From assembly GCA_007449985.2 (NCBI GenBank), contig VIIQ02000064.1:392626-456625 (forward strand): a DNA stretch of 64,000 bases. Reading direction: 5' to 3'. Below, in pieces: positions 32,425-63,767 of this stretch. Numbering within the stretch: the stretch's first letter is position 1; each line of letters opens with the position of its first letter. The notes under the pieces were generated by a model, which had not been told where the DNA came from, did not search any database, and saw only the letters and a list, made by a program, of their open reading frames with translations. The position numbers were made by a program, and so were the translations under genes. The DNA comes from Desmodesmus armatus. Its lineage: Eukaryota > Chlorophyta > Chlorophyceae > Sphaeropleales > Scenedesmaceae.

Positions 32425-32457
<33 letters not shown>

Positions 32458-32621
32458 AGGCGGAGCTTGCCAAGCAGGCCCTTGCGCGTGGGCTTCCTGC
32501 CTACATTGTCCATGATGCTGGGCGCACCCAGATAGCAGCAGGCTCACAGACAGTGCTGGCGATAGGCCCAGGGCCCAAGAGTGTGGTGGATCAGGTCACG
32601 GGGGGCCTCTCACTCTTGTAG
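30895..32621 (+). CDS. PTH2: Peptidyl-tRNA hydrolase 2 (Pth2/Bit1 family), membrane anchored
   Basis: It releases the peptide from peptidyl-tRNA that has dropped off the ribosome. Four exons: 30895-31020, 31363-31522, 32105-32235 and 32460-32621, total 192 residues, no frame break. Exon 1 encodes [11 protein letters not shown] and then one hydrophobic segment ([19 protein letters not shown]), as in the animal form, which is anchored in the mitochondrial outer membrane. An alanine-rich linker follows. The catalytic domain is complete: [20 protein letters not shown] with the active-site lysine region, CAHAAVGV, then a KxxLxxKxxDQEM block, [19 protein letters not shown], and TVLAIGPGP near the C terminus. 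A TGTAA signal lies at 32778. The third and fourth acceptors follow ordinary and (CTG)n tracts respectively. Confidence 0.95.
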
Positions 32622-33488: not shown

Positions 33489-36400
33489 ATGGCATGGGAA
33501 TGTCAGAGCGAACTGCTCCGCAAGCTGCTGTTGTTTGGATTGCTGACCGGTAAGTGTGGTTGTCTGTGACTTCCTCTGCAGTAGGTGTTTACGCTATGGA
33601 ATCGGAGGATGCGTGTTTGTTCTTTAACGAGAACCAGCAGCAGCGCTGAGCATGTATGAAGTGAGATGCGTCTGCCCCCCTGTGTAGTCTGCTTACTCCA
33701 CCGCTCCGGCCCTCAACCTGATATATAACCATAATACATGGTCTTAACCAATCTCGATGCCTGCCAACCGATCATCCACGCGCTATCATCGACATTCTGC
33801 CGTGGCGCGCTGAACTCTCGGAACCCTTCCCAGCCATCGCTGCCGGCGACATCCACAGCATTGTGGACTGTGAACCACTAGAAGAGGTTCAGCAAGGTGA
33901 GCAACTGCCTGCGGTTGCTGCAGCAGCTGTGCCTGCAGCTGTGCCGGTGATCTGGATCAGTCTGTTTGTCAACAATGCAATGATTGGGCGGCCAGCAAAT
34001 GGTTGCAGTGTTTTCAGGAGGCCAAAGCATCGATGACGTCATTGCTGGCGCCATGTAAGCGGTGTGTTTGTGGTGAAGCTGAGAATGAGTCCAATCAGGG
34101 CCGCCATGTGACAACGCCATGTCGTGTTGCTGCTCCTGCTACCACTGCTGCTGCTGCTGCTGCTGCTGCTGCGTGCAGCCCCTGTCCAGAATGCTCTGAG
34201 GCGCCTGCTGCAAGGGTCTCCAGATGCTCCTCTGCCAAATGCCAGGATACTTTATCAGTACCGTAATGGAAAAATTGGAGGATGTGATTTTGACCTCAGG
34301 GGTGAGAGGGGGCTTGTGCAGGCTTAGCGCAGCCCAGAACTTTCCTCATGTTTTTGTTAAGCTGTGATGCAAGCAAACCGGTCAGCGTGCAATGGCCAGC
34401 TTCACATCGACCATGCCCGGCACAAAAGGGCTGGGCCACACAAAAAAAAGCATGGTTGTGTCTGATGTGCTGTATCAGGCGGCTGCTTGCCGACGTATGC
34501 ACACACATATGGGGTGTTGCAATGCTGCCGCTGCAGGTTTGAAAATGACATGCCACTTTGCCCTGGAAAACTCTGCATGGCCTCAAGGTGCTGCCACGCT
34601 TCACAACATCACCATCGAGGGCTACAACGGGACTGCAGTGGCAGTATTGCCTCCTGGAAGCACGTTCGGTTGGCAGCAGGTGTTTACTTTCACGGCTGCA
34701 GATGTGTATGAGAGTTACCTGAACATCAACTTGACGGCAAGGGGGTACATTGCCCTTGCCAATCGGACTGTGCCATATGATGTGCCTTTCTCCAGCAAGC
34801 AACAGATTCCTGTCCCGCTTTCTGCATTGGATTTCAGAGTCTTCCCAGCCCTTCGAGGCTCAAGTAAGTTGACCATGCGCATTGCGCATGGGCAGCGCTG
34901 CCGGCCTAGTGCATGCGGCTCGTCAGAGAGCACTACTGCCGTGGTATCGCGTTCAACGCTGAGCTGGGCTTGTGACTCTGAAGCAGACACCCGGCATGCA
35001 GAAGGGCATTGCGCAACTCATGCTTGGGGGTCCGCCCCTCTTATTTTTTTACCAAACAAAGCGCATGCTGTGGGCTGACAACCACAAAGGTATAACGACC
35101 ATCATGATGATCATGCATACACTTGCAAGCGGCAATTGCCGCTCGTTCACTGCATGATGCCTTCATACCAGCGCATTGGCAATCTGTCTGCCTTGGGAGG
35201 AACACCAGCTGGTAGCGTGTGGAAAATTTCGTAAGTAAGTAACATCCTCTGACCTACTGCATCTACTTATTGCCCGACATCTTGCACCAAATCTAGTAGA
35301 GCAAACCCGCAACTGCTGGGTGCCTGCTCCTGTTCTGCACTTGCAGGGAACGCACCCAGCGTGACAGTGGAAGTCGCCAACATGGGTCAAACCAAGCCGG
35401 GACTGTGGCTGGTGCAGGCTGCAACTGAAGTCAGTATCGACGTGATGACTACAGACGCTGCGTACCGAGGGCGCGCAGGGGGTTCCTTCAAAGTGTACGA
35501 ATGCGCACGCAAGGACGCAGGATCGGACTCCTCGATACAGTTACCATGGCAGGATAAGTATGGGGGTAACTGGGACGAGTACGAAAGGATCTCTCTACTG
35601 TACAATTTGCCGCCCGGCAGCAACTTGGCGTGTAAAAGCGACCGCGCGGATATTACTTGGCTGCCACCCGGGGAAGTCAGATTTTCATGGTGGTACGCAA
35701 CCAACGGTGCTGGCTGGTTACCCAATTACGGAGAGGTAACAGTTCCAGTTCCGCGCAGCCCACATCTGTCGTTGGCTTTGAAGCCGTCAACCTGCATGCC
35801 TTCAAGCAAGACTGGTAAGCAGGGACACTGCTCTCCAGGCAACTTGATCACGTCAAATATGTGAGGGACACAGGAGGACAGTGCAAAAGCAGCACGCATC
35901 AGGCATGAGCTTGCCAAGGTTGCATTCCAACCTGATGTACACTTTCTGCATGTGAGCATCCCTGCCCAAGCGCTTGTGTGTACTCATGCAGCTACATGGT
36001 GTGTGTTGTCATGCTAGCCCACTCAGATGCTAAATACAATGCGACGTCCAACTCTGCAGGACTTGATTTCTACTGCCCAGACGGGCTTGCCGTATCCAAC
36101 GACGGCAACACGCCCATGTCGCTGGCGGCTCTGTCCGCAAGCGCAGTGCTGCCAGACGGGTCCCCTTGTCGACACAGTGACCTCCAGCCAGAAGAGACCA
36201 CCTTTTGCGACGTAACATGGACGCTGTCGCAGCCTAAACTCGAGCTAGGCGAGACCTTTGTTCAGATCACCATTCAAGGTAATGACACAAGCAGCCCTGC
36301 AGCCAGCAGCTTGAACTTCACTGCCACTGCAGCCGTGCCTGTCCCTCAGACCCCTGCCATGTCGGTCAAGCTGGAGCAAGCATATCCTGCTGGAGTGCTG

Positions 36401-39400
36401 GAAGCAGGTGCGCTGCAAGGGACTATGAAGTCATGGCTTGTTATGCTACCAGCTCACAGCCTGTCGGTTCGGAGTTTCACACTGGCAGCCGCATCTTTCC
36501 CACAGCAAGTCACCAGGCTTTTGCGGTCCTTGGTGGCGGGGCTGTGCCAAGCTGTCAACCCAGTCCAAACTACACCGCCTTGTTTTGATACTGCAGGTTT
36601 GATTGTACACGTGAGGGCAACCATCAGCAACAAAGGTATGTGCACCTGGTACAGATGTCCTTGGGGTGGGTTGCTGGGGCTCTTGCTGGTGCGTACTCTT
36701 GTGAATGTGGGGCGATGTTGTGGACCGCAGGGGCAATGGTGGATAGGACCGGCATTATACACAGTGGGTGGATGACGGAAATGCCTTGTTTCTTTTTCTC
36801 ACAGGCAACCTACGCCTACGGAGCGTCATTTGGACGTCACGAAGGGATGAAGTGCAGCCAGCATGCACCGCCTACGGCGATCTCCAGCCATCCCTGCCCT
36901 GGGTTTTCGGTTCAGACATTGCAGTCGGCCAACATGTAGTGTGTGAGGGGGCGTACGTGGTCACCGATATCGACTTGCAGCAGGCCACTCTGTCACCAGG
37001 AGGTGCCATACAGGTTCAGCTGTCAGTGTCAGTGCAAGCGTCCGTTGGTCAGAGCCTCAGTAAGATCAACAGCACATGTAGTGGTGTGAATTGTTACCAT
37101 GTATTTTCCTCGCCATTGCTTCACTTGCACAACACTACACATCACATATCTCAGTGAGTGCTGTAGTCACAGGAACCGAGTATCCTTACTGTTATGACCT
37201 CATCGACATCCGCTGTAACCAGACACACTGACACACGCGTCATGCAGGCTGTACAACTGATTCAACTCCTTTCTCACTCTCATCACGACACTCTGCTACA
37301 GTATAGCGTCTCCTACTCCACTCACTGAACCTGACACCCTGATAGAATGTAGTGTCCACTTCACCACAACAGGCTGATCACTGCATTCTCACTGCAGTCT
37401 CACACATCTCTACACACGTCAGTCCCCAACTGCTGGACTAACGCCGGGCGCCCTCCGACTCCACCATATAGTTTGACAAGCGAGGGGTACAAAATTGCAA
37501 GAAAGGGACGCTGTCCTTGACCGCTACGCGAGAAGCAGCCACCTGACGATCTTCTCACTGAAACCAACCACAGAAACGACTCGAGACTGAAGACTCAGGA
37601 GACCACGTCTATCGACTGAGCTGGACCGTGTTAATCCCAAACACCGGACAATGTTGCAATGCAGGCACAGCCTACATGCACACACAGATGCTGTTGTGGG
37701 GTTTAGGGCTGTGACATGAAAGACACAACAGCACAACTCAAACTACTACACACAGCGGATGCACTGGTGCAGGTGCTGGCTGAACCAGGGCTGGCGCTGC
37801 AGATGGATGCCACCAATTGCACTGTGGGTGAGTCGCTGCTGTTTTGAGACAGCAACAAGCCGCCGGCTGTATGGTGGGGTATGTGGTGCCTGTTTGCCAA
37901 GCCCCATTGAGCATGTCAAAGACACCCGTGGCAATGATTTCCCTGCTCATGTGGACATCCATAGCAGCTGATTTGAGAAGGCGACACACTGCTGGCTTTC
38001 ATGCTACATAGCCCCAAACGCATACCTGACCCAATCAGGCCTGACAGCGGTTTACGCATTGCTTGTAGTGCAAAGTACAATGTGCATGCTCAGCAACACT
38101 GTCGAAGACCGTTTGCCTGCTGATGTCTGCACCTGTGCAGGCGCTGAAGTTGTTGTGTGTCGTACTGCCATCAAGAACACCGGCCTGCTCCCTGTGAAAG
38201 CCATCACAGTCACTGGTGCAGACAACAACTGCAGCATATCTTACATGGCACCTTCAGACACATACCAGTGCAGCATGTGGACACAAGTGGGCGCTGTAGC
38301 TGATACGTACAGCATTGAAGCTACGGGCATCACTGGTACTGTTGTGGGCCCCAATTTGCTGCCGGATGTGCCACCCAGCCGGGTCACAGTTGCAGCACCA
38401 CAGGCAACAGTTGCCTTGCTGCAAGTTTTGCTGGAGGCCAACAGCAGCAGTGTGGCCAAAGCAGGAGGCTCTGTCATGCTGAAAGTGACGTTGGTGAGTC
38501 GTAATCAAGTGATGCTCCAGCCAGCTTACTGTGATGCTGCATGTCTTTGTGAACCTGCTCAGACGTCCCTTGCTGGCGAGGCTCTGCCTCCAGCCTCCGG
38601 CAGTTTGGGTCACTCTGCTGATTTGTGTGGCGATTGCGAGTGGGGGTGCGCCTCGCTTGGCTGCCTTTTGTGTGGGCAGCCGTTACAGCACCAAGTGTAT
38701 GGATTTTATTGGCGACTGTATCTTAGTTGAACATCCATTTGCGCCTCACTGCTATGTACATATGTCACATTGCAGGAGAACACTGGCTCTGTTGTGCTGT
38801 CAGGCATAGACCTCAACAGCACCTCCCTCGGCCAGCTGAGCAGCCCCCTGACCTGTGGGGCAAGCGGCACCCAAACAATTGCCACCCTGGCACCTGGAGA
38901 GAGTGTGACATGCACCGGATCCATCCTGATTGACCAAGCCTCCTTTGACCAAGGGCCCATGCTGCTATCAGTTGTGTTTACAGCAGGCACTGCTGCACAG
39001 CAACAGACCATAGCAGCTGCGTCAAACACTCTTGGCGTGACACCCCTGCGAGCAGCAACTTTACAGATCACACACTCCTGTGGCCGCATCCCTGAAGCTG
39101 CAGGTAGGACCAATGGGGTTTGGCCAGAGAAGGAGATGCATCGTGTCGACTTTTTTGCAGCCTGCAGTCATGCTGCTTGTTGTCGGTTTACATCCTGCCT
39201 GTTGCCGTGACCGCCTGATCACTGCACATAGTAATCGATATTGCACGCTCCAAAATGCACTGCGGTCAACTGAGCACCCGTCCATACATGCATAGCGCCA
39301 AGCATTGTGGTTGTCTGACCCTGACCTGCCCTGTCTGTGTGTGGCTACATACAGGTCAAGACTTATCCTGTACGTTGAATGTCACCAACACTGGCACTGT

Positions 39401-42400
39401 CCTGCTCAAGAATGTGACCGTGCCATTGTCACCTGGCGTTACCTCCGCCACACCATGTGACTTTCCTGCCCTAGCCCCCTCCTCCACCGCACACTGCACA
39501 CTTATTTGGCGGGCGACGCAGCGAGACTTTGACATATGGGACGAACAGTACGAGCAAATTGCGTCAGGCCTGATGCTGCGGTCGGTTGACGTGCAGGCTG
39601 TTGCATCAGCTGTGCCCGCGCTGACAGCTCATGCTGTCGTTGAAGTTGCAGCCCCCCTTACGGCACGGCCAGCCCTCAGCATCAACATCACCAGGCGGTT
39701 ACCTCCGATGGGAGGTTCTTCGTCGCAGTATGATCCTATGTGTTGTGGTGGATCATCTGGAAGTGCTACTGGCGGGTCGTGCTTCTGCGACCTTTACAAC
39801 AAGAATGACCAGCGGGTGACAGGCTCTTGGACTGGGTGGACACGTCCGTTGCAAAGCAGTAGCAACTTTGTGCTTGTGCCAGGTAAGTGATTTCCTCAGC
39901 AGCCTCAAACCTTGACCTTGTACTTGCCACTGCTTGAGTAAATCTGTCCACAGCATGCTTGCTATAATCCTTGCCATGCCTTGTCGCTGGGATGTGGACC
40001 ATCAGACTGTTGGATTCTTTGTGGTCTAGTCGTGTTCATTGCTAGTTGGCAAGCTGGTTTTGCCAGTCAGTTTGTGATGTACTAGCCCAGGAACGCATGC
40101 ACATGCTAATGGTGCTGCTAACCCACCTGTGGCCAACCAAGTGATGCTTCCCTGGCACAGGTGACCCTATCCTCTATTCTTTCACACTGTCAAACACGGG
40201 AAGTGTGGCCCTACGTGACCTACGTCTGCGGCAGAACAGTGACATCGTATCTGTGACCTGTCAGCCCAGCCTCAACAGCACGCTGCCCGTGGGGGCTACC
40301 ATGACGTGTCTGGCCCGCCGTTACTTGACCCAAGACGAATTCGACTTCAATCACACGATATCAGCGCAATTTGTTGCCAGCAACATTGTGCCTCATCCTG
40401 ACGGCCTGCAGGTGAACAGCAATACACCCAAGTCTGACACACCCCGGGTATTTATGCAAAAGGTTGGCCTGACCAGCCCGGGCTTGACAAGGCTGGGTGA
40501 TCTGCGGGCTGAAGCTGAGGGATGGCAGTGCAACCATATGGAGTCCACAGGTGGGGCTTGCTTCTGGCACATGCACTACTCGTCATGTAGCGTCAATGCT
40601 ATCAAGAAGCATCAAGGAATGCTATTTGAGGTGTCATTGCTTCTACTCAAACCCCAAACGTGTTGCACCTTGTTGCAAAGGTTCGGGTTTGCGGTGCTGT
40701 GTGTTGCCCTTGCAGCCTACATGCTGGAGTGTCATGCCGTCATGCGGAACAATGGCACCCTGAATCTCTTTGACATCCATGGTCCCTGGGACTTCCATGC
40801 ACCTGCGCTATCTTCTGGTGCATATCAATCAGTGTCTGTGAGTGAGATGCCCAAACCTACAGCACTGACATCTGACTGACTTGGAGGAGCATGCTTGCAT
40901 CACTGCATCGCTTTAACTAAAACGGGGGGGGGGGGGGGGTGCAGCCGCTGCTGATGGGTACCTCCGGCACAGGTGCTGCCAATGTAGGGTGGTAAAACCT
41001 GGGCCTAACCATGATATCTTGTTTCTTGACACTACCAATGCAGTACTATCTACCATTAACAGAGCAGGACCTTGATGCTGGCAAGGCCAACGTCAGTGGC
41101 ACAGTGTACGCGAGCTTCAACAAAGGAGGCAACATATCTGTGGTGGCCCGAACCTATTCTACAATAGCAACGCTGTGGCAACAATGGCCAACACTGGAGG
41201 TCAGCATCGCTCTTGCACCCAACCAGTCTGCATGGATCAGCAGCGCAGGTGAGTGGCAAGGCAACAGTTGCGTTGGGCAATTGGTCCTGGGAACACTGCC
41301 ACATGCAGTCCATGTGCAGTGCTGCTACCAGCTTGTCTCAAAATGTCAGACTGGCACCCTTTGCCAGTGTTGCGCAACGAAAGCGGAGCTCCAGCACATC
41401 TCAGTACTGTCTGTGTACATGTGTAAATTTTTGCAGGCTCTGTTGTGTCATTCATCCTTACAGCAGTCAACAGGTAAGCTGCTAGAGCAACCAGTAGTTG
41501 CTCTGGATGGCCTCCTTGACTGACTGTTCTGCTATGCCGCAGCCTTCAAGCATTCAGCTGTTTGGTGGGACAACAGGTCCATGCCTTGAATATCATGGCC
41601 ACATGCTGCCAGCCAATCAATCATTTTCACTGCATGCGCATGCACACTTACAAGATCCCTGAACGCCTGCCACTGCTGCAGGGGTACTACACGGCTGTAC
41701 AATGTCACGGTCAACAGCCCAGACCTGGATACTGTCCACTGCCCTACCACCAACACCACCTTGCGCATTCGGCAAAACCTCACCTGTACCGGAACCTACA
41801 CCATCAAAGAGTGGGACCTGCAACAGCCCTCTCTGTCCTTCAACGTGCAAGGCAACTCACCCACCCTACCGCCTGACAGGCAAGCACGTATTGGTCCCAC
41901 AGCTGTCCTGCACATGCTGGTGACCTCTCAGCTGCACCTGGATGTTGTGGCCAGCTCGTGCCACAGAGCAACGCTACCTGCAAGTGAGTGCCACTGAAGC
42001 ACTGAATCCCGGGTTGGTTGATACGGCAATGCTCCTTGAGCACGATGCATGAACGAAAGGTCATTCATTCTGCTAGGGTATTCAGAGTATCACAACAGCT
42101 GTCTCAGCCATCTGTGAGTCCCCTGCTACTGCCTCCTATCACCCTCAAAGCAAGCTTGCTCCCTATTGGCCTTGCAGGTGGAACACAAGCAGGGGGCATG
42201 CTTGATGTGGTACGCTGCACTGTGATGCTTGCCAACTTTGGCAGCTTGAGCTTGAGGGATATTGTGCTGGATGGTGTTGATGCTGGGTGCAATGCCCTTG
42301 AGCTTTCGCCAGGGCAGTCTGTCAACTGCACAGCTACAAGGTAACACCACTGGAGCACACGTGGAGCTGCAAGGCCCTTGAGCAAGTCGCTCAGCAAGAT

Positions 42401-45400
42401 CTTGGCAAGATGCTGAAACACAGTGCCCCTGCTATGAACCACACACAGTGTACTACTAGTACGCTTTGAAAGCGAAGCCGGAGCGCAATGCCACACATTT
42501 CCTGTTAGGGGAGGTTTGCTTGATAGGAGTAGGATGCTTTGATGTAAGCGGTGACACTCACCATTGAATGTGCACTTTGTGGCTCTCAGGCTTCTGGCGT
42601 CAGATGATCTGGAAGCTGGCTTTGTCACGGTGATTGTTCCTGCTGCATCAGGACAGCCTGACAATGGCAATGTGCCCAGAGTGTTCAGCACACCTGACAG
42701 CGCGGTTGTGGTTCTGGGTGGCAGGGTTTCTATGATGGACATCAGCGTTGCAGCTGTACCTCTGGTGATACACCAGCACGGTGAGTGCTGAGATGGCTTG
42801 TACTGTGGGTGCAGCACCGTCCTGCAGTGGGTTGCAGCCTTGGCCTTCTACACACCACACCTTGTAATTTACCAAGTAGTTCAGGTAGCTGCTGTGCCAC
42901 TTTTGTGAAAGGGTTGCGGTGAAACACCTGCACAACCTGCGTGATCCTGCAGGAACACCCATCAATCTCACCGCCACTGTCACCAACACCGGCAACATGA
43001 CCCTCAAGGGCGTGATGGTGGACGTCCCAGACGTCTTCAGAGCCACCATGGTCTGCACCATTGGCTCTCAGCCATACAACACCACATCACTCCTGCAGCC
43101 TGGGGCAGTGCTGACCTGCAAGTCTTCCTATGTGGCCACGCTCTCTGATCTTGAGGAGGGAGACCACACTGCAACAGTGACTGCGGTGACCCCTGCTGCA
43201 GACCTGTCTGTTTCCCGAGACATTACCTTTGTTGCCCAGCGGCGACCTGAGGTCTCAATAGAGATAAACAGCGCTGAATGCAGCAGTGTGCCGGCTAAAG
43301 CAGGTGAGAGCGTGGATGGATTGTGCCAGTGCACGTCTTGAGTCTCATCACGCAAAACAACGTCACAACTGTTACGCGGGTCGCACCACATCCGACCCGA
43401 CCCCTGGCTTAGTGGAAGAGCAAACATTTCACACGCGCTGCTCTACTTTCACAGCACAAACATCACGTCGACCATCGCTAGACCGCCGCCCGTCGCACCG
43501 TGCTATCCGCCATTACGGCGCAAGTGGCATGGGTGGGTCGCGCAACCCATCGATGCTGCACAACATGCGTAGGGGTTTCTGGTTGACCTCACATATGCAT
43601 CAATCATTTGTTCGCTCGCAGGTGAAACGCTCGTGTGCCCCTTCTATCTGCGCAACAGTGGCAACGTTGGCCTCAGCAGCGTCAGCTTGACTACGCCTAC
43701 AGCAGCTGGCTGCGTGGCAGGAATACTGGAGCCGCTGGCAAGGGCCCCTGCATGCAATATCACAGCCATCGCCACCCAACAAGACTTTGAACAGGGCTTC
43801 ATGCGTCTCACAGTGGAGGGAAGTGCTCTGCCGCGCACCAAGTCACCGGTACCTTTCCCTTGGGTGCAGTCCTCTATCCCTGTGCAACTGACAAGGGTTA
43901 GTAAAGTCAGCGTCACTGGCACAGCAGACCCTGCCACAGTCTCTGCACCAGGTGAGCTGTGCATCAGTCAACAAGTGAGGCAGCAAGGTGGTGCAGGACT
44001 GGTGGATGTGTGCACGGTACTGTTACCCAGTCCAGCCACATGGGGAAAACGAAGTGCACATCGCCTGGATGTGTGTATGTTCACGGGAAATTCCATCTGT
44101 CCTGGTGACCTTAGTAGCAATCCAGAAGCGCAGGAAGGTAGAAAGTATGACCCTGAGCCCTTTGCGCTGCACCGCTGCAGGCCAGAACGTGACCTTGGTG
44201 TACACCATCTACAACACAGGCAATGTGCTGCTGCGCAACCTCAGTGTTGTGGTGCCAGACCTTGGACAGCTTGCCTGCATGCAGGACGGGGGCAGCATTG
44301 GGGTTGACGGGCAAGTGCAGTGCAGGTGCGTAGCACTGCTACTGCTGGCTGTTGGCAACAGTAGGAGCACTATCAGCCGCAGATTTTGCATAATCAGCAC
44401 GAACAAGGCAATCGTTGACGCCTCTTTGCATTGTGTGCATTCATATGACTGCAGTGCACAGCCCACTTGGGAGATAGCAGAAGATCAGATGCTTGGCAGA
44501 CACACACACCAACAGTTGCCTACATGAAGTGCCAAAGTGCTGTTGATATCTTGCCATTTTTGCCACAACAAGCTGCGCAGCAACCATATGCAGGGTGCCT
44601 GCTTTGGCTGCATGAGCACTACCTGACATGAATGGTCTTACAGTTTGTACCGGCTGTTACTTCCTGCAGGGCGTCATACACCTTCACTCAAGACTCCTTT
44701 GAGGCTGGCACCAAGGTGTTCAACGCATCTGTCACAGCAGCCAACCTGACATTGGCGGGGTCTGTTGTACAGCCAATCACCGTAGTGGTCCTGCAGTCGC
44801 CCAGGCTTGCACTCACCACCAGTGAGGACAACTGCACACTGAACTTCAAGGGTAAGGGCATGTTGATAGAAGCTGACCTCTGCACCGGGCGACTATGTGT
44901 TGGCGTCAGCACCTCAATTGGCGCCTAGAAATGATATTACCCTGCAGTCAAAAGGTGGGGCAAAGAGAGAAGCCCTCAGTCAAGTTACAGCATGGTAGGT
45001 CATCATCTGCATGACCAAGTGTGCCAGCACTAAAATCCCGCTGCTGTTCTGTGTTTTCTGACATGTTTTTGCTCTGCAGCTGGCCTGGTGGAGTGCACAG
45101 TTGAGGCCAGAAATGAGGGCAATGTACGTTTAAACGGTTTCAGCCTAGCTGGTGACGCCGTCACCTGTGGTACGGCCACTGCCCAAACCATTCCTCCTGG
45201 CGGGTCTGTCAAGTGTGTGCTGCGCAAGGCCGTCACTGCCCAACAGCTGGCTGATGCTGGACAGCTGCAGCTGTCCCACCCTGTCACTGTCACCCCAGCT
45301 GGGCAGGTGCCGGCTTTGCTCAACGCACCCCTCAACACAACTCTATTGAGCCTGGCCAGCCTCATTGGGGCATCTCCAGCTTGCAGCGCCTGCCGCAGCT

Positions 45401-54400: not shown

Positions 54401-57400
54401 TGTGCAGCATGCATGCTGCAGCAGCAGTGTGTGTGCCAGCATGCACATTCGGTATGGCCAGCATGCACACCACTTTCCTGCGCATGCAGCCGGGACCAGC
54501 ACAACCTGCTTTCCCATTGTGCCTGCAGGGTGCCAGCCCCCTGTCCTTCAGTTGGGACTGTGTGCGTGAGGACTTCCCCAAGCCATGCTTTGCCGGCACA
54601 GACATGGGCAACATCAAGGGCAGCAGGTGGGGCCCCCACAGTGCGGCACTGTACTGTGCTGACAGCCGCTGGCAGCGCCACACATACCCTGGGACACACT
54701 CTTGTTTGTTTTTGTGCGCGGCAGCTGTTGTGGTGTGTCTACCTGCCAGCTTGCTGTGTTTCTGTGAGTGTGCCCGCCAGTCTGGTGCTGTAGTCTCCTG
54801 TGACAGTCTCAATGCATACTATGCCCGGTGAGAGGGCAACCGGCCGGTGAGAGGGCAACCCCCTCCCTCGATGCTTGCTGTTCTGTAGGTGGACCATCTC
54901 TGCAGGCCTGCTGACAGGCATGGAGAAGGCCCACACCTTCACTGTCACTGTGTCCAAGGGCTCAGGTGATGCGGCACGCGCTGCCAAGCAGTCACTGCAG
55001 ATCCGCCCTCGCGACCCAGCAGTGCCCATCCCTACTGGTGTGCTGGCCCGTGACTGTGGAGGCTCATGCAGTGCCAGGCATGCTGGCGTGCAACCTCTCA
55101 GTGTCTCGCTGAAGCTCGAAAAGCAAGACATCAAGCTGCTGAGCAGCATTGACAAGCAGGTTCATATCCAGTGGAGCCTCGACCCACCAGGACCGCAGCC
55201 CTTGGTTGTCCCAGCCACTGCTGCTGTTGCCAGCGCCACCCGCAACGCTCAGGTGCAGCTGGTCATCCCTCGGGAGTCCCTGCCAAACACAGCAGCAGTC
55301 ACTGTCTCTGTCAAGCTGACTATTCCAGGACAGGAGGGCTCAGGCTCCGCGAGTCTGACCGTGCCCCTGAACTCCGCGCCTGTGGTGAAGAGTGGGCTGG
55401 AGATGGAGCTGCTTGGCAGCGACCGCAGCTACGGCAAGGCCGCCTTCAGGCTGTCAGCAGCGGGCATCGTGGACGACAACGAGCTCACGTGAGTGCTGTA
55501 GCGTTTCTGTTCTTTTGGACAAAGGCAACATCCCAGAGTCAAACTTCGAGCTTTGTGCGTTTGTGCTGGGGGGCAACCCAGCGTGACGGAATCCACACTA
55601 CATCTGCGATCGTTTCTGGTGTTTGCCCACTGTTCCCTGCAGCTACGAGATCTTCAGGGGGTCCGAGTTCATCAAGCGCACCAAGTCAAACACGTACACC
55701 TTCGGTGCTGGCGAGTTGGCTGAGGGCAACACCACACTTTGGGTGCACGCTTTCGACCCCGAAGGTGCCGTTGTGCGTGCCAGCATCGACGTGTACGTCG
55801 CACCGAAGGGCCCAGACTTCGACGTCGAAGAGCGTATCTTTGCGATGGACGTCCAGCAGGCGGTCGGCGCGAACGACCCGAGCATGCTCTCCCGAAGGCT
55901 CCCTGCTGGGCACGTTGACTGACATGAGCAAGGGCAAGTCAGCAAGCAACAAAAAGGGCCGCAGACTGCAGCAGGAGTCTGGTGGCGACACTTCAGACAG
56001 CGACATTGCTGAGATTGTGCGGGTGAAGGTCCTGCAGCTGCTGGCTGCGCTGACCAGCAGCTCCGCCAGCAGTGTCATGGATGCAGCAACAATGCGTCAG
56101 GTGAGCACAGCCCGGCAGGCGCTGCAGCATCAGGTGTACTGAGGTGGACTGACTGTAAAGTCCACATATGTGGATAAACCGCTCCATCCGGTTGTGTTGT
56201 GACAACTCCATCTCCCTTTCGATATGCGCTTAGTGCCCCACTGACACCATTTTACACTGCGTTTTTGGTTACTGCCCCGAAGCTGCTGATACTTTGTCAA
56301 TGTCATATGCTGTATACAAATACATCCGATACGGTCCCAGCTGATCCGTTGCAGCACTATGCTGCACACACGAAGTGGTGATCCATCTGCAGCAGTACCC
56401 CACTTTTTCAAGACGCCCCGGCGGCGACCAGAAACACGCACGCATGTTTGATGTGCTAAAAATATGTGCTTCGTTTGTGCCATTGCCCTTTGCAGCACTA
56501 GCTCGTTCGCCCGAAGGGACCATCGATCAGCAGCAGTACCACTTTGCGCAGCGTCACGTAGCAACATGCTGGATAATATTGATACTGTAAACTATACCAT
56601 TGAAAATAGGGTACGTGCCAGACAACGGCATGACTTGGCACGTGTGCATGCATAGCCAAAGTCATCACCCACCTCAGTCTGTGCCCCACTTTCTATTTGC
56701 ACCATCGTGTCCTGTGTGCTGGTAGTGAACACCATATTCATCATTGCTGATTGGTAAACGTTGATAGTGTGACTGTCATCCCAACCTGCTGTAGCATGCA
56801 GTACATCCCCCAATACGGCGCAGTTGCCTGGCGCAGTTGCGTGTTGGCTCTGCACATCTTGAAATTGAGCAGGGTCGCAAGCGTAGGGAGTCTGTCCCAA
56901 GGGCGGATCGCATCTGTCGTTTGTGCTCTGGTCAGGACGCTTCGCTGGCCAACCGCGCTGCTGTGCTGGCCCGTACTGGCACCAGCAACAATGTTGAAGA
57001 TCTAAAGCACTTCATTCTTGAATGTCCCGTGTATGATGATCTGCGCACCGCCTGCCCAGCCTTTGCTGACCCGGCTTCAGTCCAGTTGGGTGACCAAGAT
57101 TGTGTTGCTACTGTGTTTCAACATGCCGAACAGTCGGCCCTGGCACACACTTTGTACAAAATGAAAGTGCGCAGAGCACGCTTGCTTGGCCTTACTATGG
57201 GTATTTGACTGACTTTGTTCTGTTTCTTGTGTCCACACTGGTATAGTTGCCTGCCCTCATCTCTGCACACAATAGGTTCCTAGCATGGCTGGCACTTGCT
57301 GCAATTCTGGTGGTTCTGCCTTCTTTGGTCAACCCGGTGTAGGTGGTGCAAACCACCGCAGGGGAGACAACTTATGAGGTTCACCTGGCTCGATCCTGGT

Positions 57401-60400
57401 GGGCAATGCCATTGTTGTTTGGCGAAAATGTCCATGTAACATACTCCCCCAATACAGTCGGTTTCTGCTACCGTCTACTGCACTACCTGACAACCGTAGA
57501 TACTTTCATCATTCTGTTGCAGCTGTTCGGAGTTGATTAGGCTCCAGCTTTGCCACCCACGGTGTGCAACACATAGCCCTGTGTATTACTGCCGTTGTCT
57601 GGCACGTGCAGGTACCAATCACTCATGCACACACCATACCGTGTCACCACCATAGAAACGGCAAAAGACAAGCATGGAATCCAGGTGCTGCCTGCTGAGT
57701 TGGATCCCATTGTGATGTCACACAGAGGCCAGAGAGGCGGGGGGGGGCTGGGGGGGCGCAGCACCCCAGGTAAAAGCGGGGGGGCTTGGGGGGGGCGCAG
57801 CCCCCCCAAACACTCTGACGGACTAAGTGGGGCGTAGACCTTTTGAGGTGCGGGTATGTGCACATTACTCTATTTCTTTTCACATCACAATCCCTGCTTT
57901 GTCCTGCAGATCTCTGGCAGCGCCTACCAGCTGCTCCTTATGCAGGAGGACAGCCAGCTCACTGACCGCAGATTGCAGGCTGCCCTCAGCATCACCGCTG
58001 ACGCCATCACCAGCGCTGTGCAGGCAGGCAAGGGCGTGGACAGCGCGTATGCCACTGAGCTGCTGGTCATGACGGCACGGGGCCTGCAGCTGTCAAGGAC
58101 AGCCAGTGACGCAGGCAGCAGCAGCGCAGGACGTCGGCTGCTGGCTGCCCCTGAAGGCTACACTGCTTCTGTGGCAAATGGAGCTTCCCGTGGCACACTG
58201 TTGGGGAACCTGGATGCGCTTGCAGACCTGCTTGGCGACAATGCCGCCCCTGGGCTTGGCTGGATCACGGCCCCATCAACAGACTTATCGGTGTCAGTTG
58301 TCAATGACCTTGGTGGTAGCTATTTCAACTACACAGTTGCTGTCGGCACTCAAACGACCAATGGTACATCAACCCAAGCAGCAGACCTAAACAGTGCAGC
58401 CAATGCCCAAGTCGCATTCCTGACAGCCCTCATTCCATCCGAAGGCGCTGACAGTGTGCCCATCTGGCTGCAGTTGGTTCAGGACCCCGCCGTGCTTGTC
58501 ACGTCAACACCTGCACCCACAGAGGCTGACATCAATGCATTCAAGGCTGCTGCTTGGAACGACACCCTGCCACGCGTGGCTCCGCCTCTGCTCAACCTGA
58601 CTGTGCTCACTCCTGCAGTCAGGGTCAAGCTGCCTCAGCTGAGTGGTGACGCTGCTGCCCTGCCATGTGCAGCAGCTGAGGGCGATGCCACAGTGGACTG
58701 CAGGATCGTCATCAAGCTTCCAGTAGTTGACCCAGCATATGTGGACACCAGCAGGCTGCTGCTGTGCTTGCGCATCAATGGAGACGGCAACCTTGTGGCT
58801 GCGGCGTCTGAGGAAGATGGTTGGCAGCTGTACGGCAACTACAGTACAGACGGCACCCTCCGCTGCTCCACCAGACGGCAGGGAACCTACCTCATTGCTG
58901 CTGTGGACCCTGTGGACACCACACCGCCTGCTGTCACACCAGAGCCTCCTGCAACAGTCAACATCACGGCATGCAACGGCACCACAGCCTTTGACAGCAA
59001 CGGCACCGCGTGCAACACCACTGCCAATGTTACCTCTCCTGACAGCAACACCACAACCAATGCCAGCCTGGGCGGGGGTGGGGACACTAGCAGTGCTGGG
59101 ACAAGTGGCACCACTGGGCAAGATAGCACCACTGACAGCCAGGACAGCACGGCCAACGTCACCCCTCCCACCACCTCCACCACCACCACGAATGCCAGCC
59201 TAGGCGGCGGTACCAGTGGGGACAGTGCTGGGCTGAATGGCACCAACGCCACCAGCGCCCCACCCGAGCCTGCGGCGTCTCCCTCACCTCAGGTGGTTGC
59301 AGCCTCCCCCAGTCCCTCCCCCCAGGTGCCACTGCAGGGCGTACAGCAGACGCCAGCATCCAAGCTGAGTGGCCTGCTCATCAACCTGGGCGCAGTGCAG
59401 TCATGCACGGTGAGTGAACAGACACACACAGGGCCTGCAGTCGAGAGCCCCTTGCGCCTAGCATAGTCATACGGTATGCATTGCCCTGCTAGCGGTGTCC
59501 GTGCAGATGTGTTTGCGTGCGGTTACTCCATGAAGCTGTGATGGCCTGCTGCATGACTGAGTGCAGTGCTGCTGTTGCCTGCGTGGCAGCTGTGACGGTG
59601 TCTTAGCTGTGTCGTATAGGAACAGTGCTTACTCCCCATAAGGTCTATGCCCCACTGAGTTTGGCAGAGGGTTAGGGGGGGCTGCGCCCCCCCTAAACCC
59701 CCCCGCTTTTCCTGGGGGGGCTGCGCCCCCCCAGACCCCCCCGCACTTTCCCTATGTGCCAGCAAAACCGAAACCGTGCTGAAGGGCCACACCCATTCCC
59801 AGTAACAGTTAGTGCGTAAGGCTGTGAGTGTGTCGGAGGTATTGGTAGTCTCCTCAGCCATGCACATGGGCACCAGTTGAACCCAAGTGCTTGTGAGTTG
59901 CTATGCAGCAGGTGAGTTGCAGGGTTGCGTAGCAGGCTGTGCCCTGCACCAATCAACTAAGCCTTAGCCACAGTGTGGGAAGTGTGGCCTGGACTGCAGT
60001 GTACACTGCCATACATGTATGGCAAGGGTGGGTGTGTAGGTGCACTGAATGGTGTGCCGGGGGGCTGCAACCTGTGCCTGTTGCAACTTGCAAACTGGGT
60101 GGCGCTGCATTGATGATGCCAAGATCTGCGCAGATCTACGCATGCGTAGTGTGTCTGCTCGCCAGCTGGCCATGAAATCCTGCACTGTTATAGTCCAGGA
60201 CTGTCAGAGTGTGCACAGATGCATTGCCTGCATGCTGTGTGGTGCGCTGTTACTAACAGCCCCTAGTAGGGGCTGACAGCTGCCATGTAGTGTAATGAAA
60301 GTAGTGTGTGCATATTCATTGGTCCGACCAAGCGGATTTGGTTGTAAACAGTTGGGGGCGATGTTTGTGCCACCAGTCCCCAGCAGCAGAAGTCAACACA

Positions 60401-63400
60401 AAGATGCCAACGTCATGGTAAGGTGACAAAGCCATTGACACATCACGGACAGGGCATGCGCAAGGTCTTGTGCATTCCGTGTTGTGTGAAGGCATACACC
60501 CAAACACAACAGCTTTAGAGGTATGATAAGCTGAAAACGTCAAGAGATGTCTGTCTGCAGATTGTCAACAGGTGTGGTTCAGCATATCGTAGTGGCATCA
60601 TGTCAAGACACTGCTCAGTGGTGTACATGTGTGCAAAAGAAAGGACAGTGAGGAGCAAGGATGGCGCTTGATGCTGTGATAGCACAATGGAATGTCTTCC
60701 AGCTATGTTTGCCCGCGTTTAAGCGTGCAGGCGACGTGGAGTAGCACAGCGCCAGCTACAGGGTGTACTAGTTGCAGCTCGTACTGCACGGTGCATGTCG
60801 TGTGTGGAGACGCTAACAGCGTAAATATGTTTTATATCATTTATGTAGTGATCGCTAATAAGCGCAGCAGTTGCTGTGCTGCACACGCAAATTGTGCTGC
60901 TGCTGTTGCAAGTAGATGATCTGCTGTGGTCATGTTGGTGCTGCTAAGGATTGGGCAAGGCCGGTTTTGAGGTATGCAAACCATCACGATAAGAATAGAA
61001 AAGTATCAGCTGCTGCAACGCCCTGAGCAAAAAGCGAGTCAAATGGGTGTCAGTGGGGCACCAAACTCAATCAAATGTTGCGAAGGCTGCAAACTTCACC
61101 GTACAGCTGCACTTTACTATGTCGTCCTGCAGGGCACCTACGAGCCTGTGGGGCAAGGCAACGCGCAGCAGGTCACCACAGATGCAACAGGCCGCTTCAC
61201 AGTACCCAGCCCTGTGCTGGCAACCTACACCTTTGTCTCTTCAGGCCCTGGCTCCTGTGTGGATGATGTGACAGACTCCAGCCTGGTGTTCCCCTACACA
61301 CTGGTGCTGCCTCCGTTGGCAAGTGTCACCATCAGTGCCATCTCCCTTCTGGCAGTGCCAGCACGGGGTGATGCAGACCTGCAGGCCAAGCATGGATCCA
61401 TGGCTGAGGTGGTACCTGCTGAACTCTGGACTGACGTATATGGCATGTTTGGCTACACAGCCAACGACAAGGTGGGCAAAAAAGGCTTGGGGAGGGCTAG
61501 TTGAATGCCAGTGCAGTTGGGCACATCTGTCTGCATTGCAGATCCGGCATGCAGATGAGTGAGATTGTGATTGAGATTGTGGACACTTGTCCTCCTTGTG
61601 ACGGCTCTGAAATGTTTTGTTCAGCAACGCGTGCGTGTAGCATGTTGCTCACTCATGCTGTCGTCTATGTGCTGGTGTCTATGTTTGTCTGGTGGCTGCC
61701 CAGGTGGACTTCCTGGCGCTCACTGGGCTGAGTGGTCCCCAGTTTGCAGCTATGCAGGGCCACAGTGCACAGGCCATGTCCACATCAGTGCCCTGCACAG
61801 CCTGATGAAGAGACTGCTGAATGCGACAGACCCTGCTGACGTGGCAACAGCTGTGGTGCAAGCAGTGTACAACCGGGTGAAGGACACTGCACCAACAAAT
61901 GCTGCACAAGTGAGTACCCAACACACACCCTACATGACCTCACATGGAGTGCATGCCAACTGAAGCCTCTTTTGTGCATCTGGTCTTGTAAACCTTCAAG
62001 GGTTACAGCAATCATATTTTTGATGAAAGGCAATCCTCCCTTACCGTCTGCAGCATCGATGCAACCACTGCTGCAGCTGGCACCGCGCCGGACATGCACG
62101 GTACAATGGACAAGCGACACCTTTGCTGCTGTTGTGTTTCAGGTTCTGACAACCAAAGCCGACCTGCAGGCAGTTGCTGAGGCTGTCTACACTGACAGTG
62201 ACCTCCAGCCCTCTGGGCAGCAACGCAAGCTGCAAGCACCCTCCACCCCCAGCAACCTGGCAGCGCTGTTTGAAGTCATAAGCCAGGTGCGCCACAACAT
62301 TGCGCATTTGCAAATACAGTGTTTGAGCGGTTTTCAGTCTGCAATGCACAGCGCGGAAGCCCTGACACCCTCAGCGCTTGGGGCTTTGGTGCAAAGGCAG
62401 CTGTTGACCTGGTCCATCTGCACCTGCAAGCTGTGACTTGCCTGGCAAAACTTGCACGGTCCATTAGTGGGGTCCAAGAGTTCAATGCCAAGCAGGTGCA
62501 AGCAGCAAACTGCGGGTTTAGTGGTTCTGCATAGTGTGCAAGCTGCGCTGCACAACTGCGCTGCATGCCGCAACCAAGCAAGCAACCGATCACCATCACA
62601 CATGGCTACCAGCCAGCGGCTTGTCCTGTGTGTCGTGCGTGTTGCGCAGGTTGTTGCTGGCATCAACCAGAAGCTACAGGAGCTGGTGGTGCAGGCACAG
62701 CAGCTGGCAGGGTCAGGGGACAGCAGTGACGCGTCAGCGCTGTTACAGCTCCATGTCAGCATCAGCAAGCTGGCGGCAGTGCAGCAGCAGGACGTGGTGG
62801 CAAGCATTGCCGACATGGCAGATAAGGCCGCTGCGGATCCCAGCTACGACCCATCCAGTGACATTGCTGGCTTTTCCAATGTGAGTCGTGGCGATATCAC
62901 AGCAGCCTGCTGAGCAGCAGCAGCATGTGCATCCGGCCATAGCGTTACCTACGTCTACCTAGTAGTCAGACGACTGCTAGTATCTCAATCGCAAGCAGTG
63001 GTTGCGCAGAAGGTGTAGTGGCTGAGGAGCGCTTTTCTTTTCTCTGTTCCTCCTGCAGGCGTTCACTGGAGAAGCGCTGCAGCAGCTTGCCAACTCAAAG
63101 GTTGTTGACACGGCCGCCATATCGAGCCTCCTGGACATGCTGGCGGTCACCAAAACCCCGCCCGAACCCCACCAAACAACGCGTGGATTGCTGGACCGGT
63201 CATCGGCAGCGTTGTCGGGCTCGCGCTTGTCGGTTGTGTGGCTGGCTCCTGTACAAGAGGCGACAGAGGGCCACTGCGCCTGCGCCGTTTGATGCCGCTG
63301 AACCTGCCGCTGAAACCGTTGCGGCTGAAACCGACGCTGCTGCACGCATCCGCCGACTCAGCGACAAGAACGCAGCGCAGCAGGCGACAGAGCCAGGAGC

Positions 63401-63767
63401 AATCCAGGTGAGGATAACATTCATGCAGAGTACTCAATACCTGGTTGGCAACCTTGACGTATGAAAGCTTCCTCTACTACGGCAGTGTGCCAATCTTGTA
63501 AGGCCATTCAAGTCCTGCTGTCCACAGAGAGCGTCTGTCAGTGTTGATCGCCAGTGCACAGTTTGTCAACAAGGGTTGGCTCGCGATCTCTGATCTGGCT
63601 GCTGGCTTTTGTGCGCTTTGCAGGACCCTCCTGCTTTGCAGGCCCTGCTGCCCCTCGTGCTGGCGCTGAGCTCCCAGCTGCCAACAGCCCGTGGGCGACG
63701 TTGGAGCGGGCTGCAGAAACATAGGGCTGCAGCATTGGAGGGACATCACTGCTGTGCGTTGCTGTGA
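33489..63767 (+). CDS. Giant modular cell-surface protein: signal peptide, DUF11-type repeats, saposin-like array, REJ-like region, one TM helix
   Basis: At least 42 exons join by phase. From the first: 33489-33549, 34179-34301, 34537-34863, 35347-35814, 36060-36407, 36597-36635, 36805-37059, 37756-37827, 38141-38493, 38776-39103, 39355-39882, 40161-40550, 40716-40837, 41044-41248, 41437-41473, 41682-41983, 42178-42340, 42590-42780, 42953-43303, 43622-43951, 44181-44325, 44670-44851, 45080-45712, 45860-46566, 46788-49145, 49323-50245, 50456-50596, 50740-50911, 51103-51437, 51692-52240, 52440-53107, 53320-53748, 54029-54319, 54529-54626, 54889-55488, 55643-56100, 57910-59409, 61133-61471, 61704-61909, 62143-62286, 62650-62880, 63059-63407. 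Sum is about 16.4 kb, near 5,500 residues. The signal peptide core is LLRKLLLFGLLTGA. The TM helix near 63190-63245 reads AGPVIGSVVGLALVGCVA and is followed by LYKRRQR. A further in-frame exon from 63624 to a stop at 63765 is plausible. Frame breaks occur near 49832 (surplus G), 55893, 61760, 63160 and 63240. No enzyme motif is seen; a role in adhesion or recognition at the cell or flagellar surface is inference. Confidence 0.8.
34537..45350 (+). repeat. About 14 DUF11-type Ig-like repeats within the giant protein
   Basis: Each repeat starts with a hydrophobic strand ending in the N-[TSE]-G signature and ends with a T-x-x-D-[FL]-x-x-G motif. Examples of starts: GQDLSCTLNVTNTGTVLLKN, GDPILYSFTLSNTGSVALRD, GTPINLTATVTNTGNMTLKG, GETLVCPFYLRNSGNVGLSS and GQNVTLVYTIYNTGNVLLRN. 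Examples of ends: TQRDFD, TQDEFD, TEQDLDAG, TLSDLEEG, TQQDFEQG, TQDSFEAG. This is the pattern of the bacterial and archaeal surface repeat DUF11 (TIGR01451). Cysteine pairs are common in the units. Nearly every repeat is opened by a phase-1 intron placed just before the first residues of the strand. The first two units (34537-35814) are the most divergent. Confidence 0.8.
45367..52240 (+). repeat. Eleven saposin-B-like modules alternating with a second Cys-rich motif
   Basis: Module starts near 45379, 46042, 46549, 47317, 47827, 48329, 48829, 49530, 50020, 51103 and 51870. Each has C-x2-C, then about 25-35 residues, a cysteine after an aromatic position, about 7-15 residues, a cysteine, about 22 residues and C-x5-C. 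The second half carries a strongly conserved GNLGKRAGLxC core (NLGRRAAGLCFALELC, NLGKRAAGLCFALGQC, NLGRRVGALCRSLAEC). This spacing is that of saposin B domains, helical folds that bind lipids or membranes. Between modules lies a linker of the form D-x-CT-x-EG-x-x-GG, then GRC, C, C, CxC, G-x-DTC and G-x-C. The first module shares its exon with the last DUF11-type repeat. Confidence 0.75.
52440..56100 (+). other. REJ-like region of the giant protein
   Basis: After the last Cys-rich motif, the exon at 52440 continues into LSARFSPDGKQITITLNAA and a pair of cysteines (FSCSSLF, AWCSAGDRVLTVQL) that resemble the strand pattern before REJ domains. The exon at 54029 ends with VVLDASKSLDPDDP and the next opens PLSFSWDC, the hallmark start of the receptor-for-egg-jelly domain found in polycystin-1. 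Later exons give further beta-rich sequence ending in ASIDVYVAPKGPDFD. A frame change near 55893, beside a CCC run, separates the end of this region from RRLQQESGG and a helical stretch. The domain call rests on motif recognition by eye. Confidence 0.62.
56790..57450 (+). mobile_element. 5'-truncated LINE-like retrotransposon in an intron of the giant gene
   Basis: The frame at 56837-57208 ends a protein with RICRLCSGQ, then about 25 residues, then LKHFILECPVYDDLR: the C-x2-C...H-x4-C zinc knuckle found at the C terminus of many non-LTR reverse transcriptases. Reverse transcriptase itself is absent, so this is a 5'-truncated copy. The 3' non-coding part (57328-57450) is shared with 16248-16378 and both end at the same CCATGTAACATACTCCCCC, as expected of LINE insertions. 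It lies in the 1.8-kb intron between exons 56100 and 57910, same orientation as the gene. Confidence 0.68.
57738..57844 (+). repeat. GC-rich palindromic repeat, copy 1 (intron of giant gene)
   Basis: Contains two blocks of G runs, GCGCAG and C runs (GGGGGGCGCAGCCCCCCC) separated by AGGTAAAAGCGGGG, and ends GACTAAGTGGGGCGTAGACC. The reverse complement of 59637-59752 has the same order. Each block can fold on itself. Confidence 0.8.
59410..61132. other. Long intron of the giant gene (1.7 kb)
   Basis: Apart from the GC-rich repeat, it holds only G/T-rich non-coding sequence with a short ATGTATGGCA-type palindrome near 60012 (CATACATGTATGG). No protein-like frame was found. Confidence 0.5.
59637..59752 (-). 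repeat. GC-rich palindromic repeat, copy 2, inverted (next intron)
   Basis: Reads AAGGTCTATGCCCCACTGAG, then GGGGGGGCTGCGCCCCCCC twice with CCCCGCTTTTCCTGG between. It is the inverted counterpart of 57738-57844, so exon 57910-59409 is flanked by inverted repeats. Confidence 0.8.

What the first reader, a model, noticed from the sequence alone, without database searches (positions are those of the whole stretch)
33489..63767. A ~5,500-residue algal surface protein that fuses DUF11-type repeats, a saposin-like array and an REJ-like module
Signal peptide, about 14 prokaryote-style Ig repeats, 11 six-cysteine saposin-like modules, an REJ-like region, an N-glycan stalk and one TM helix sit in one phase-consistent gene. 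Two exons (45080-45712 and 52440-53107) each span a domain-class boundary, which argues against separate genes. I know of no described protein with this architecture. The combination of lipid-binding-type folds with gamete or polycystin-type recognition domains suggests a cell-cell or flagellar-surface recognition role.
Basis: partly seen in the sequence, partly recalled or inferred. Interest (0 to 1): 0.87.

Follow-up and report, generated by a model that had tools for sequence, protein, structure and literature searches.

The report
Giant algal REJ–saposin surface protein family
A genome that is likely a green alga's carries a family of giant, intron-rich genes; in six of eight copies found, as in a Scenedesmus protein, bacterial-adhesin-type Ig repeats, saposin-like modules and a REJ domain (known from polycystin-1 and sea-urchin sperm) follow in the same order, and the copy in this window is predicted to make a membrane-anchored protein of over 5,000 residues that would likely recognise or hold other cells or matrix.

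Summary
Spliced exons from 33489 to 63198 read as one stop-free chain of 5,307 residues: signal-peptide-like start, about 13 DUF7507 Ig repeats, 11 six-cysteine modules, REJ domain (Pfam E 3e-18), a conserved unknown domain, N-glycan stalk, C-terminal module. Both boundary exons (45080-45712, 52440-53107) are single open frames. Relatives exclude separate genes: a 5,470-residue Scenedesmus protein, undescribed in the papers I could search, has the same order, and the window's own genome holds seven further REJ loci with saposin-type modules, five also with DUF7507. The modules are saposin-like by weak but agreeing lines; Pfam's SapB models do not match. Correction: the membrane helix and basic tail are real (open frame in five of five close paralogs), but in the window copy two frame changes within about 110 bases, 0.8 kb from the contig end, cut them off. 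Most likely this is a long, single-pass cell-surface adhesion or recognition receptor family, like the ectodomain of polycystin-1 without the channel. Function is inferred, not shown.

The parts
33489..33549 (+). First exon: ATG and signal-peptide-like start (continues into exon 33834-33896)
   Evidence: Model; hydrophobic run LLRKLLLFGLLTAIAAG by inspection; no signal-peptide predictor was at hand; no match in the C60 minus copy.
34179..44851 (+). Exons with the DUF7507-type Ig repeats (most of about 13 units, aa 83-1800)
   Evidence: hmmsearch with a local unit HMM; Pfam DUF7507. Intron phase mostly 1 (27 of 49 over the whole model).
45080..45712 (+). Boundary exon: last Ig repeat plus first saposin-like module in one open frame
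   Evidence: Open frame; full length and stop-free in C60 minus (88%), C35 (60%) and C183 (50%) paralogs.
45382..45609 (+). Saposin-like module 1
   Evidence: Six-cysteine pattern.
46051..46272 (+). Saposin-like module 2 (in exon 45878-46566)
46788..49145 (+). Long exon, one open frame: most of module 3 (46788-47000) and modules 4 (47310-47543), 5 (47826-48056), 6 (48327-48536), 7 (48831-49061), with EGF-like cysteine-rich parts between them
   Evidence: 15 homologous unnamed proteins, 33-82% identity.
49533..49754 (+). Saposin-like module 8 (unit folded alone)
   Evidence: AlphaFold2 best model pLDDT 94.0, pTM 0.81; best matches are saposin folds.
50023..50250 (+). Saposin-like module 9 (sixth Cys comes from the next exon)
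51104..51322 (+). Saposin-like module 10 with proline-rich insert before its first Cys
51871..52110 (+). Saposin-like module 11 with proline-rich insert
52440..53107 (+). Boundary exon: last cysteine-rich part into the REJ-side region
   Evidence: Open frame; full length and stop-free in C60 minus (91%), C35 (78%), C746 (69%); 44% identical to Scenedesmus over 129 residues.
53320..55862 (+). PKD-like and REJ region (6 exons)
   Evidence: Pfam REJ E 3.1e-18 on the spliced protein; 44-47% identity to Scenedesmus.
57910..59409 (+). Single 500-codon exon: conserved post-REJ domain of unknown family, then N-glycan/Pro-Ser stalk
   Evidence: Conserved in the 5 paralog loci aligned; no telling Pfam or PDB match.
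61133..62880 (+). C-terminal extracellular module (CarboxypepD_reg-like start, then mostly helix-like by eye)
   Evidence: PF13620 E 0.0021, below cut-off; colinear in C35, C183, C746, C67, C60 minus.
63059..63150 (+). Last extracellular exon part in phase with the model
63184..63240 (+). Transmembrane helix, out of phase with the upstream exon in this copy; basic tail follows in the third frame to about 63407
   Evidence: in one open frame with the upstream part in C60 minus, C35, C183, C746 and C67 copies.

Best explanation
This is one predicted, roughly 50-exon gene of a multigene family, in which DUF7507 Ig repeats, saposin-like modules and a REJ domain stand in an order that is conserved in Scenedesmus, and it would make a single-pass protein of about 5,400 residues that likely works as a long cell-surface adhesion or recognition receptor. 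Shown here: the conserved order, the coding constraint, eight REJ loci in the genome, a predicted helical saposin-like fold, and a TM helix plus basic tail in an open frame in five paralogs. Inferred: the Ig repeats and the disulfide-rich saposin/EGF part make a stiff stalk that carries the variable outer end away from the membrane; the strongly constrained REJ block and the domain after it form the membrane-near core; the short tail, with a shared T-D-x-x-x-R-I-x-R type stretch, couples to the cytoplasm. The outer parts vary most between copies (repeat number; a C-type lectin inside the Ig array of the C183 copy, two in Scenedesmus), as expected if the outer end binds partners and the core is shared machinery. 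Whether the saposin modules bind lipid or are disulfide-locked spacers is not resolved.
Confidence: 0.6

Rival explanations
1. A structural wall or extracellular-matrix glycoprotein: the long repeats serve as scaffold and the anchor only holds it to the plasma membrane; there is no specific recognition.
For: N-glycan and Pro-Ser stalk; the Scenedesmus relative starts with about 1,300 residues of Ser/Ala-Pro repeats, like hydroxyproline-rich wall proteins; parts of the REJ module of polycystin-1 bear force (PMC3677617, passages).
Against: C-type lectins in Scenedesmus and in the C183 copy; a conserved basic cytoplasmic tail; REJ more constrained than the stalk in 4 of 5 close copies. A Scenedesmus wall proteome paper, read in passages, does not hold the name olpB, which says little.
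Confidence: 0.22
2. A split polycystin-1: the giant ectodomain works in trans with the genome's one detected PKD-type channel as its missing PKD1-like partner.
For: Ig row followed by REJ as in polycystin-1, with lectins in two relatives; one PKD_channel match in the genome; in Chlamydomonas a giant lectin-bearing PKD2-like protein, MST3, completes a channel with SIP (PMC11015965, passages), and non-animals typically lack PKD1 homologs (PMC10846610, passages).
Against: No GAIN/GPS signal by Pfam or PDB profile; one TM segment; eight REJ loci against one channel match.
Confidence: 0.13
3. Two or three neighbouring genes that only look fused.
For: No cDNA; long introns (1.8 and 1.7 kb) at 56101-57909 and 59410-61132.
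Against: Single-frame boundary exons conserved in paralogs; full-length Scenedesmus protein, itself a gene prediction; the two long introns are about 190-370 bases in C35 and C60 minus.
Confidence: 0.03
4. The window copy is a decaying pseudogene of an otherwise functional family.
For: Two frame changes at 63150-63260, where five paralogs are open.
Against: The 49 other exons join without a stop (the program requires this); dN/dS well under 1 in every large block against all paralogs; the changes lie in C-rich runs 0.8 kb from the contig end, where consensus errors are plausible.
Confidence: 0.15

Closest known systems
olpB (name as given by the source), Scenedesmus sp. PABB004, 5,470 aa (P0001)
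   Same: Same order DUF7507 - saposin-like array - REJ - post-REJ domain - stalk - one TM; the last two saposin units carry the same kind of proline insert.
   Different: Adds about 1,300 residues of Ser/Ala-Pro repeats and, by eye, two C-type lectin domains (PF00059) near the N-terminus; 6 Ig units and 9 saposin units by eye, 7 by pattern; different membrane-near module and tail.
Polycystin-1 (PKD1) and sea-urchin sperm REJ proteins
   Same: REJ domain after a row of Ig-type domains; lectin domains in two relatives.
   Different: Single TM, no channel, no detectable GAIN/GPS; polycystin-1 as described in PMC3677617 (passages) has LRR, lectin, LDL-A, PKD and REJ parts but no saposin array (absence by recall). 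Details of suREJ1 are recalled.
Chlamydomonas MST1 and MST3 (mastigoneme proteins)
   Same: Giant surface proteins; MST1 is nine Ig-like domains followed by a cysteine-rich region; MST3 has lectins, Ig-like and PKD domains (PMC11015965, passages).
   Different: MST1's cysteine-rich part is of the growth-factor-receptor type; MST3 ends in a PKD2-like membrane domain; the word saposin is not in that paper's main text. MST1 was not among the three PDB chains found with the Ig profile; I did not check that it is in that copy.
[quoted passage not shown]
   Same: Tandem DUF7507 repeats in the stalk of a long surface protein (PMC12617251, passages).
   Different: Eukaryotic, intron-rich; two cysteines are invariant in six aligned units and no Lys or Asp column reaches half in 11 units, so the isopeptide triad seems not to be conserved.
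Saposins, NK-lysin, Na-SLP-1
   Same: Six-cysteine, all-helical unit.
   Different: Here alternating with EGF-like parts in an 11-fold array inside a receptor-like protein; no Pfam SapB match.

Membership tests
REJ (PF02010) | Score above Pfam's gathering cut-off | tested here: met
   66 bits against 25 on the spliced protein, best stretch profile 8-201 of 452.
DUF7507 (PF24346) | Score above cut-off, in tandem | tested here: met
   76.3 bits against 27, three stretches; 10 of 11 units (8 window, 3 Scenedesmus) match at E<=1.
DUF7507/CLIPPER_2 isopeptide domains | Conserved Lys-Asp-Asn triad | tested here: inconclusive
   No Lys or Asp column reaches 50% in the 11-unit alignment; in a smaller one of six units an Asp column does. 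The register to the bacterial triad was not aligned.
Saposin-like (SapB) | Six cysteines with saposin-like spacing | tested here: met
   11 modules by a pattern of my own; six Cys invariant in 16 units of window and Scenedesmus.
Saposin-like (SapB) | Match to Pfam SapB_1/SapB_2 | tested here: not met
   None of 16 units at E<=10 (the filters drop most weak matches); ARMET_N, a related fold by recall, matches 2.
Saposin-like (SapB) | Saposin fold | tested here: inconclusive
Saposin-like (SapB) | Lipid binding | not testable with these tools
   Needs biochemistry.
Polycystin-1 family | GAIN/GPS domain after REJ | tested here: inconclusive
   No GAIN or GPS match in 6 family members by Pfam nor in the PDB profile search; the fold was not predicted.
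Polycystin-1 family | Multi-pass membrane part with channel homology | tested here: not met
   One hydrophobic segment in the whole Scenedesmus protein; one in the C-terminal pieces of C35 and C60 minus; the one PKD_channel match of the genome is on contig C203.
MST3-like PKD2-domain giants | PKD2-like membrane domain | tested here: not met
   As above.
Sea-urchin REJ1-like receptors | C-type lectin domain (recalled as a feature) | tested here: not met
   13 Lectin_C matches in the genome, none on C60; present in the C183 copy and in Scenedesmus.

The most novel reading that the evidence does not exclude
Green algae carry their own polycystin-1-type recognition receptors: a diversified multigene family of 5,000-to-10,000-residue, single-pass REJ proteins whose outer halves were built by taking up prokaryotic adhesin repeats (now locked by disulfides) and tandem saposin modules, working as mate, kin or matrix receptors, possibly in trans with the lone PKD-type channel.
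Probability: 0.25. Interest if true: 0.86.

Novelty: new variant of a known kind. Interest (0 to 1): 0.67.

Why it matters
It shows DUF7507 adhesin repeats as a stable part of a eukaryotic, intron-rich gene family; a 2025 survey of isopeptide-bond domains, which founded this Pfam family, found it in bacteria and archaea and judged its eukaryotic isopeptide hits likely false positives or contamination. It places REJ-bearing, PKD1-like ectodomains in green algae, where the partners of PKD2 are an open question. And it gives a set of paralogs in one genome with a conserved core and variable outer ends, so that recognition, wall-anchoring and channel-partner hypotheses can be told apart by tagging and knock-out.

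Tried and rejected
Self-training gene finding with cheap introns gave 318 exons and was discarded; strict settings lost the Ig region. PHROGs, NCBIfam and PADLOC were not used. Viral contigs: no relative of the saposin exon. GAIN/GPS for the post-REJ domain, suspected by eye, was not supported. The Ig profile found only AbpX (two entries) and an S-layer protein in the PDB, all at E>1. The REJ region alone found no PDB chain below E 0.2. A retrotransposon-like look of the insert at 56795-57205 got no Pfam match. A search with the REJ part of the Scenedesmus protein found only itself among 1,005 scored candidates; the saposin query found only Scenedesmus among 2,033 scored candidates in the length class of about 2,035-6,475 aa, so absence elsewhere, Chlamydomonas included, is not shown. 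C183 and C746 are 81-96% identical in DNA pieces, window and C60 minus 86-94%; C183 and C746 could be alleles, so the number of distinct genes is seven or eight. dS against the distant copies is near saturation (1.5-2.8), one Ig value could not be computed (C183), and 3 and 6 codons beyond the block borders were left out of the dN/dS account. The Scenedesmus tail was not compared again after the wrong frame.
Full report
What was checked. The window is the last 64 kb of contig C60 (G000:C60:392626-456625; the contig ends at 456625) of a 115.8-Mb assembly in 831 contigs. That it is a green alga is inferred from the Scenedesmus relative and the genome's make-up; no marker gene was placed. I rebuilt the gene with a small splice/coding program of my own, start fixed at 33489, and then with hand-picked open-frame peptides as support. 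The refined model has 49 exons from 33489 to 63198 and 5,307 residues without a stop up to ...LLDMLAV. The steering means that exon edges in the Ig region are provisional. Without peptides the program still joined one chain over the same span (3,575 aa), but with a free start it kept only 45637-59805.

Domains. The spliced protein matches Pfam DUF7507 (E 2.2e-21, three stretches) and REJ (E 3.1e-18, 66 bits, cut-off 25); on an unspliced frame the REJ match was only 0.0015, so joining the exons is what reveals it. A unit HMM built from 8 window and 3 Scenedesmus units finds 13 Ig units at E<0.05, 12 of them under 1e-5, plus one weak one. The refined model has 11 six-cysteine modules, with EGF-like cysteine-rich parts between them.

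One gene, and a family. A Scenedesmus sp. PABB004 protein of 5,470 aa in nr (named olpB by the source) is colinear with the window protein, with an added proline-rich N-terminus and two lectin domains by eye (PF00059 listed). Fifteen unnamed proteins (sources ena, jgi, lgn) match the long saposin exon at 33-82% identity over 44-100% of it. In the window's own genome REJ occurs at eight loci (9 matches), and DUF7507 gives 62 matches on only four contigs (C35, C60, C183, C22); six of the eight loci therefore have both, C746 and C67 have none. tblastn of the window protein on fetched stretches shows the same order in C35, C183 and, inverted on the same contig, C60 minus; C746 and C67 share the saposin-to-C-terminus part; a pair on C22 is more distant. 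The Ig-to-saposin exon is full length and stop-free in C60 minus, C35 and C183; upstream of C746 was not held, in C67 it was not found in 3.8 kb held upstream, and in the C22 pair only part of it aligns. The cysteine-to-REJ exon is full length in C60 minus, C35 and C746, split by my fetch border in C183, and partial in C67 and C22. dN/dS of link+REJ is 0.14-0.34 against all seven loci (dS saturated for the distant ones); against C60 minus Ig 0.34, saposin 0.23, post-REJ 0.29, stalk 0.60, C-terminal module 0.32. The tree of the REJ block joins window and C60 minus (95/93), then C67 (90/95).

Array age. In a tree of 24 units most branches are open, but the last two units of the window and of Scenedesmus group together (81/88, with a long-branch warning) and share a proline-rich insert just before the first saposin cysteine. 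This fits an array already joined to REJ in a common ancestor.

The membrane end. In the window the helix WIAGPVIGSVVGLALVGCVAG lies in a different frame from the exon before it, and the basic tail in the third frame. A first motif scan found the helix in open frame in C60 minus and C35 only; a wider hydropathy scan, made when checking this report, found it with a basic tail in C183, C746 and C67 as well, so in 5 of 5 close paralogs. So the anchor belongs to the protein, and the window copy either carries assembly errors near the contig end or is damaged.

What it does. Inferred: a long, single-pass surface receptor or adhesin whose conserved core is REJ plus the next domain and whose outer end varies. 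Composition resembles the ectodomain of polycystin-1 (PMC3677617, passages read) and giant lectin-bearing proteins of Chlamydomonas cilia (PMC11015965 and PMC10846610, passages read), but without a channel part and without a detectable GAIN/GPS. The genome gave one PKD_channel match. The repeats' family is known from bacterial and archaeal adhesins; the survey PMC12617251 (passages read) judged its eukaryotic isopeptide hits likely false or contaminant, whereas here the repeats sit in intron-rich genes conserved between two algae. This does not contradict the survey's isopeptide claim, since the Lys and Asp seem not to be conserved here while paired cysteines are.

Novelty. None of ten paper searches turned up a description of this architecture (listings only, apart from passages of PMC11015965, PMC10846610, PMC11839794, PMC12617251 and PMC3677617). 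That covers an open-access library, not all literature. The parts are known; the combination, the family and its setting are new.

Noticed in passing
56101-57909: This intron is 1.8 kb here but about 190-240 bases in the C35 and C60 minus copies; a retrotransposon-like reading frame (56795-57205, by eye) sits inside, without a Pfam match.
   Followed up: partly
59410-61132: A 1.7-kb intron, about 220-370 bases in two paralogs, with a 39-base tandem repeat at 59675-59751.
   Followed up: partly
32110-32600: Upstream neighbour is a peptidyl-tRNA hydrolase 2 gene (PTH2, E 7.3e-27).
   Followed up: yes
L034 (C183:72000-79999), 4361-4687: C-type lectin exon inside the Ig array of the C183 copy: window Ig exons match on both sides of it.
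   Followed up: partly
C35:190832-246875: The C35 copy has DUF7507 matches over 44 kb before its REJ, so its protein may be about twice as long.
   Followed up: no
L026:251-1945: Beside the C67 copy lies a second, partial stretch of saposin modules, so perhaps a tandem duplicate or fragment.
   Followed up: no
C22:455000-514999: Two more distant family members on one contig in opposite directions.
   Followed up: no
27530-27794: Two 99%-identical copies of a 133-base repeat.
   Followed up: no
61555-61691: Model exon with a hydrophobic end that matches at none of seven paralog loci; probably runs into an intron.
   Followed up: partly
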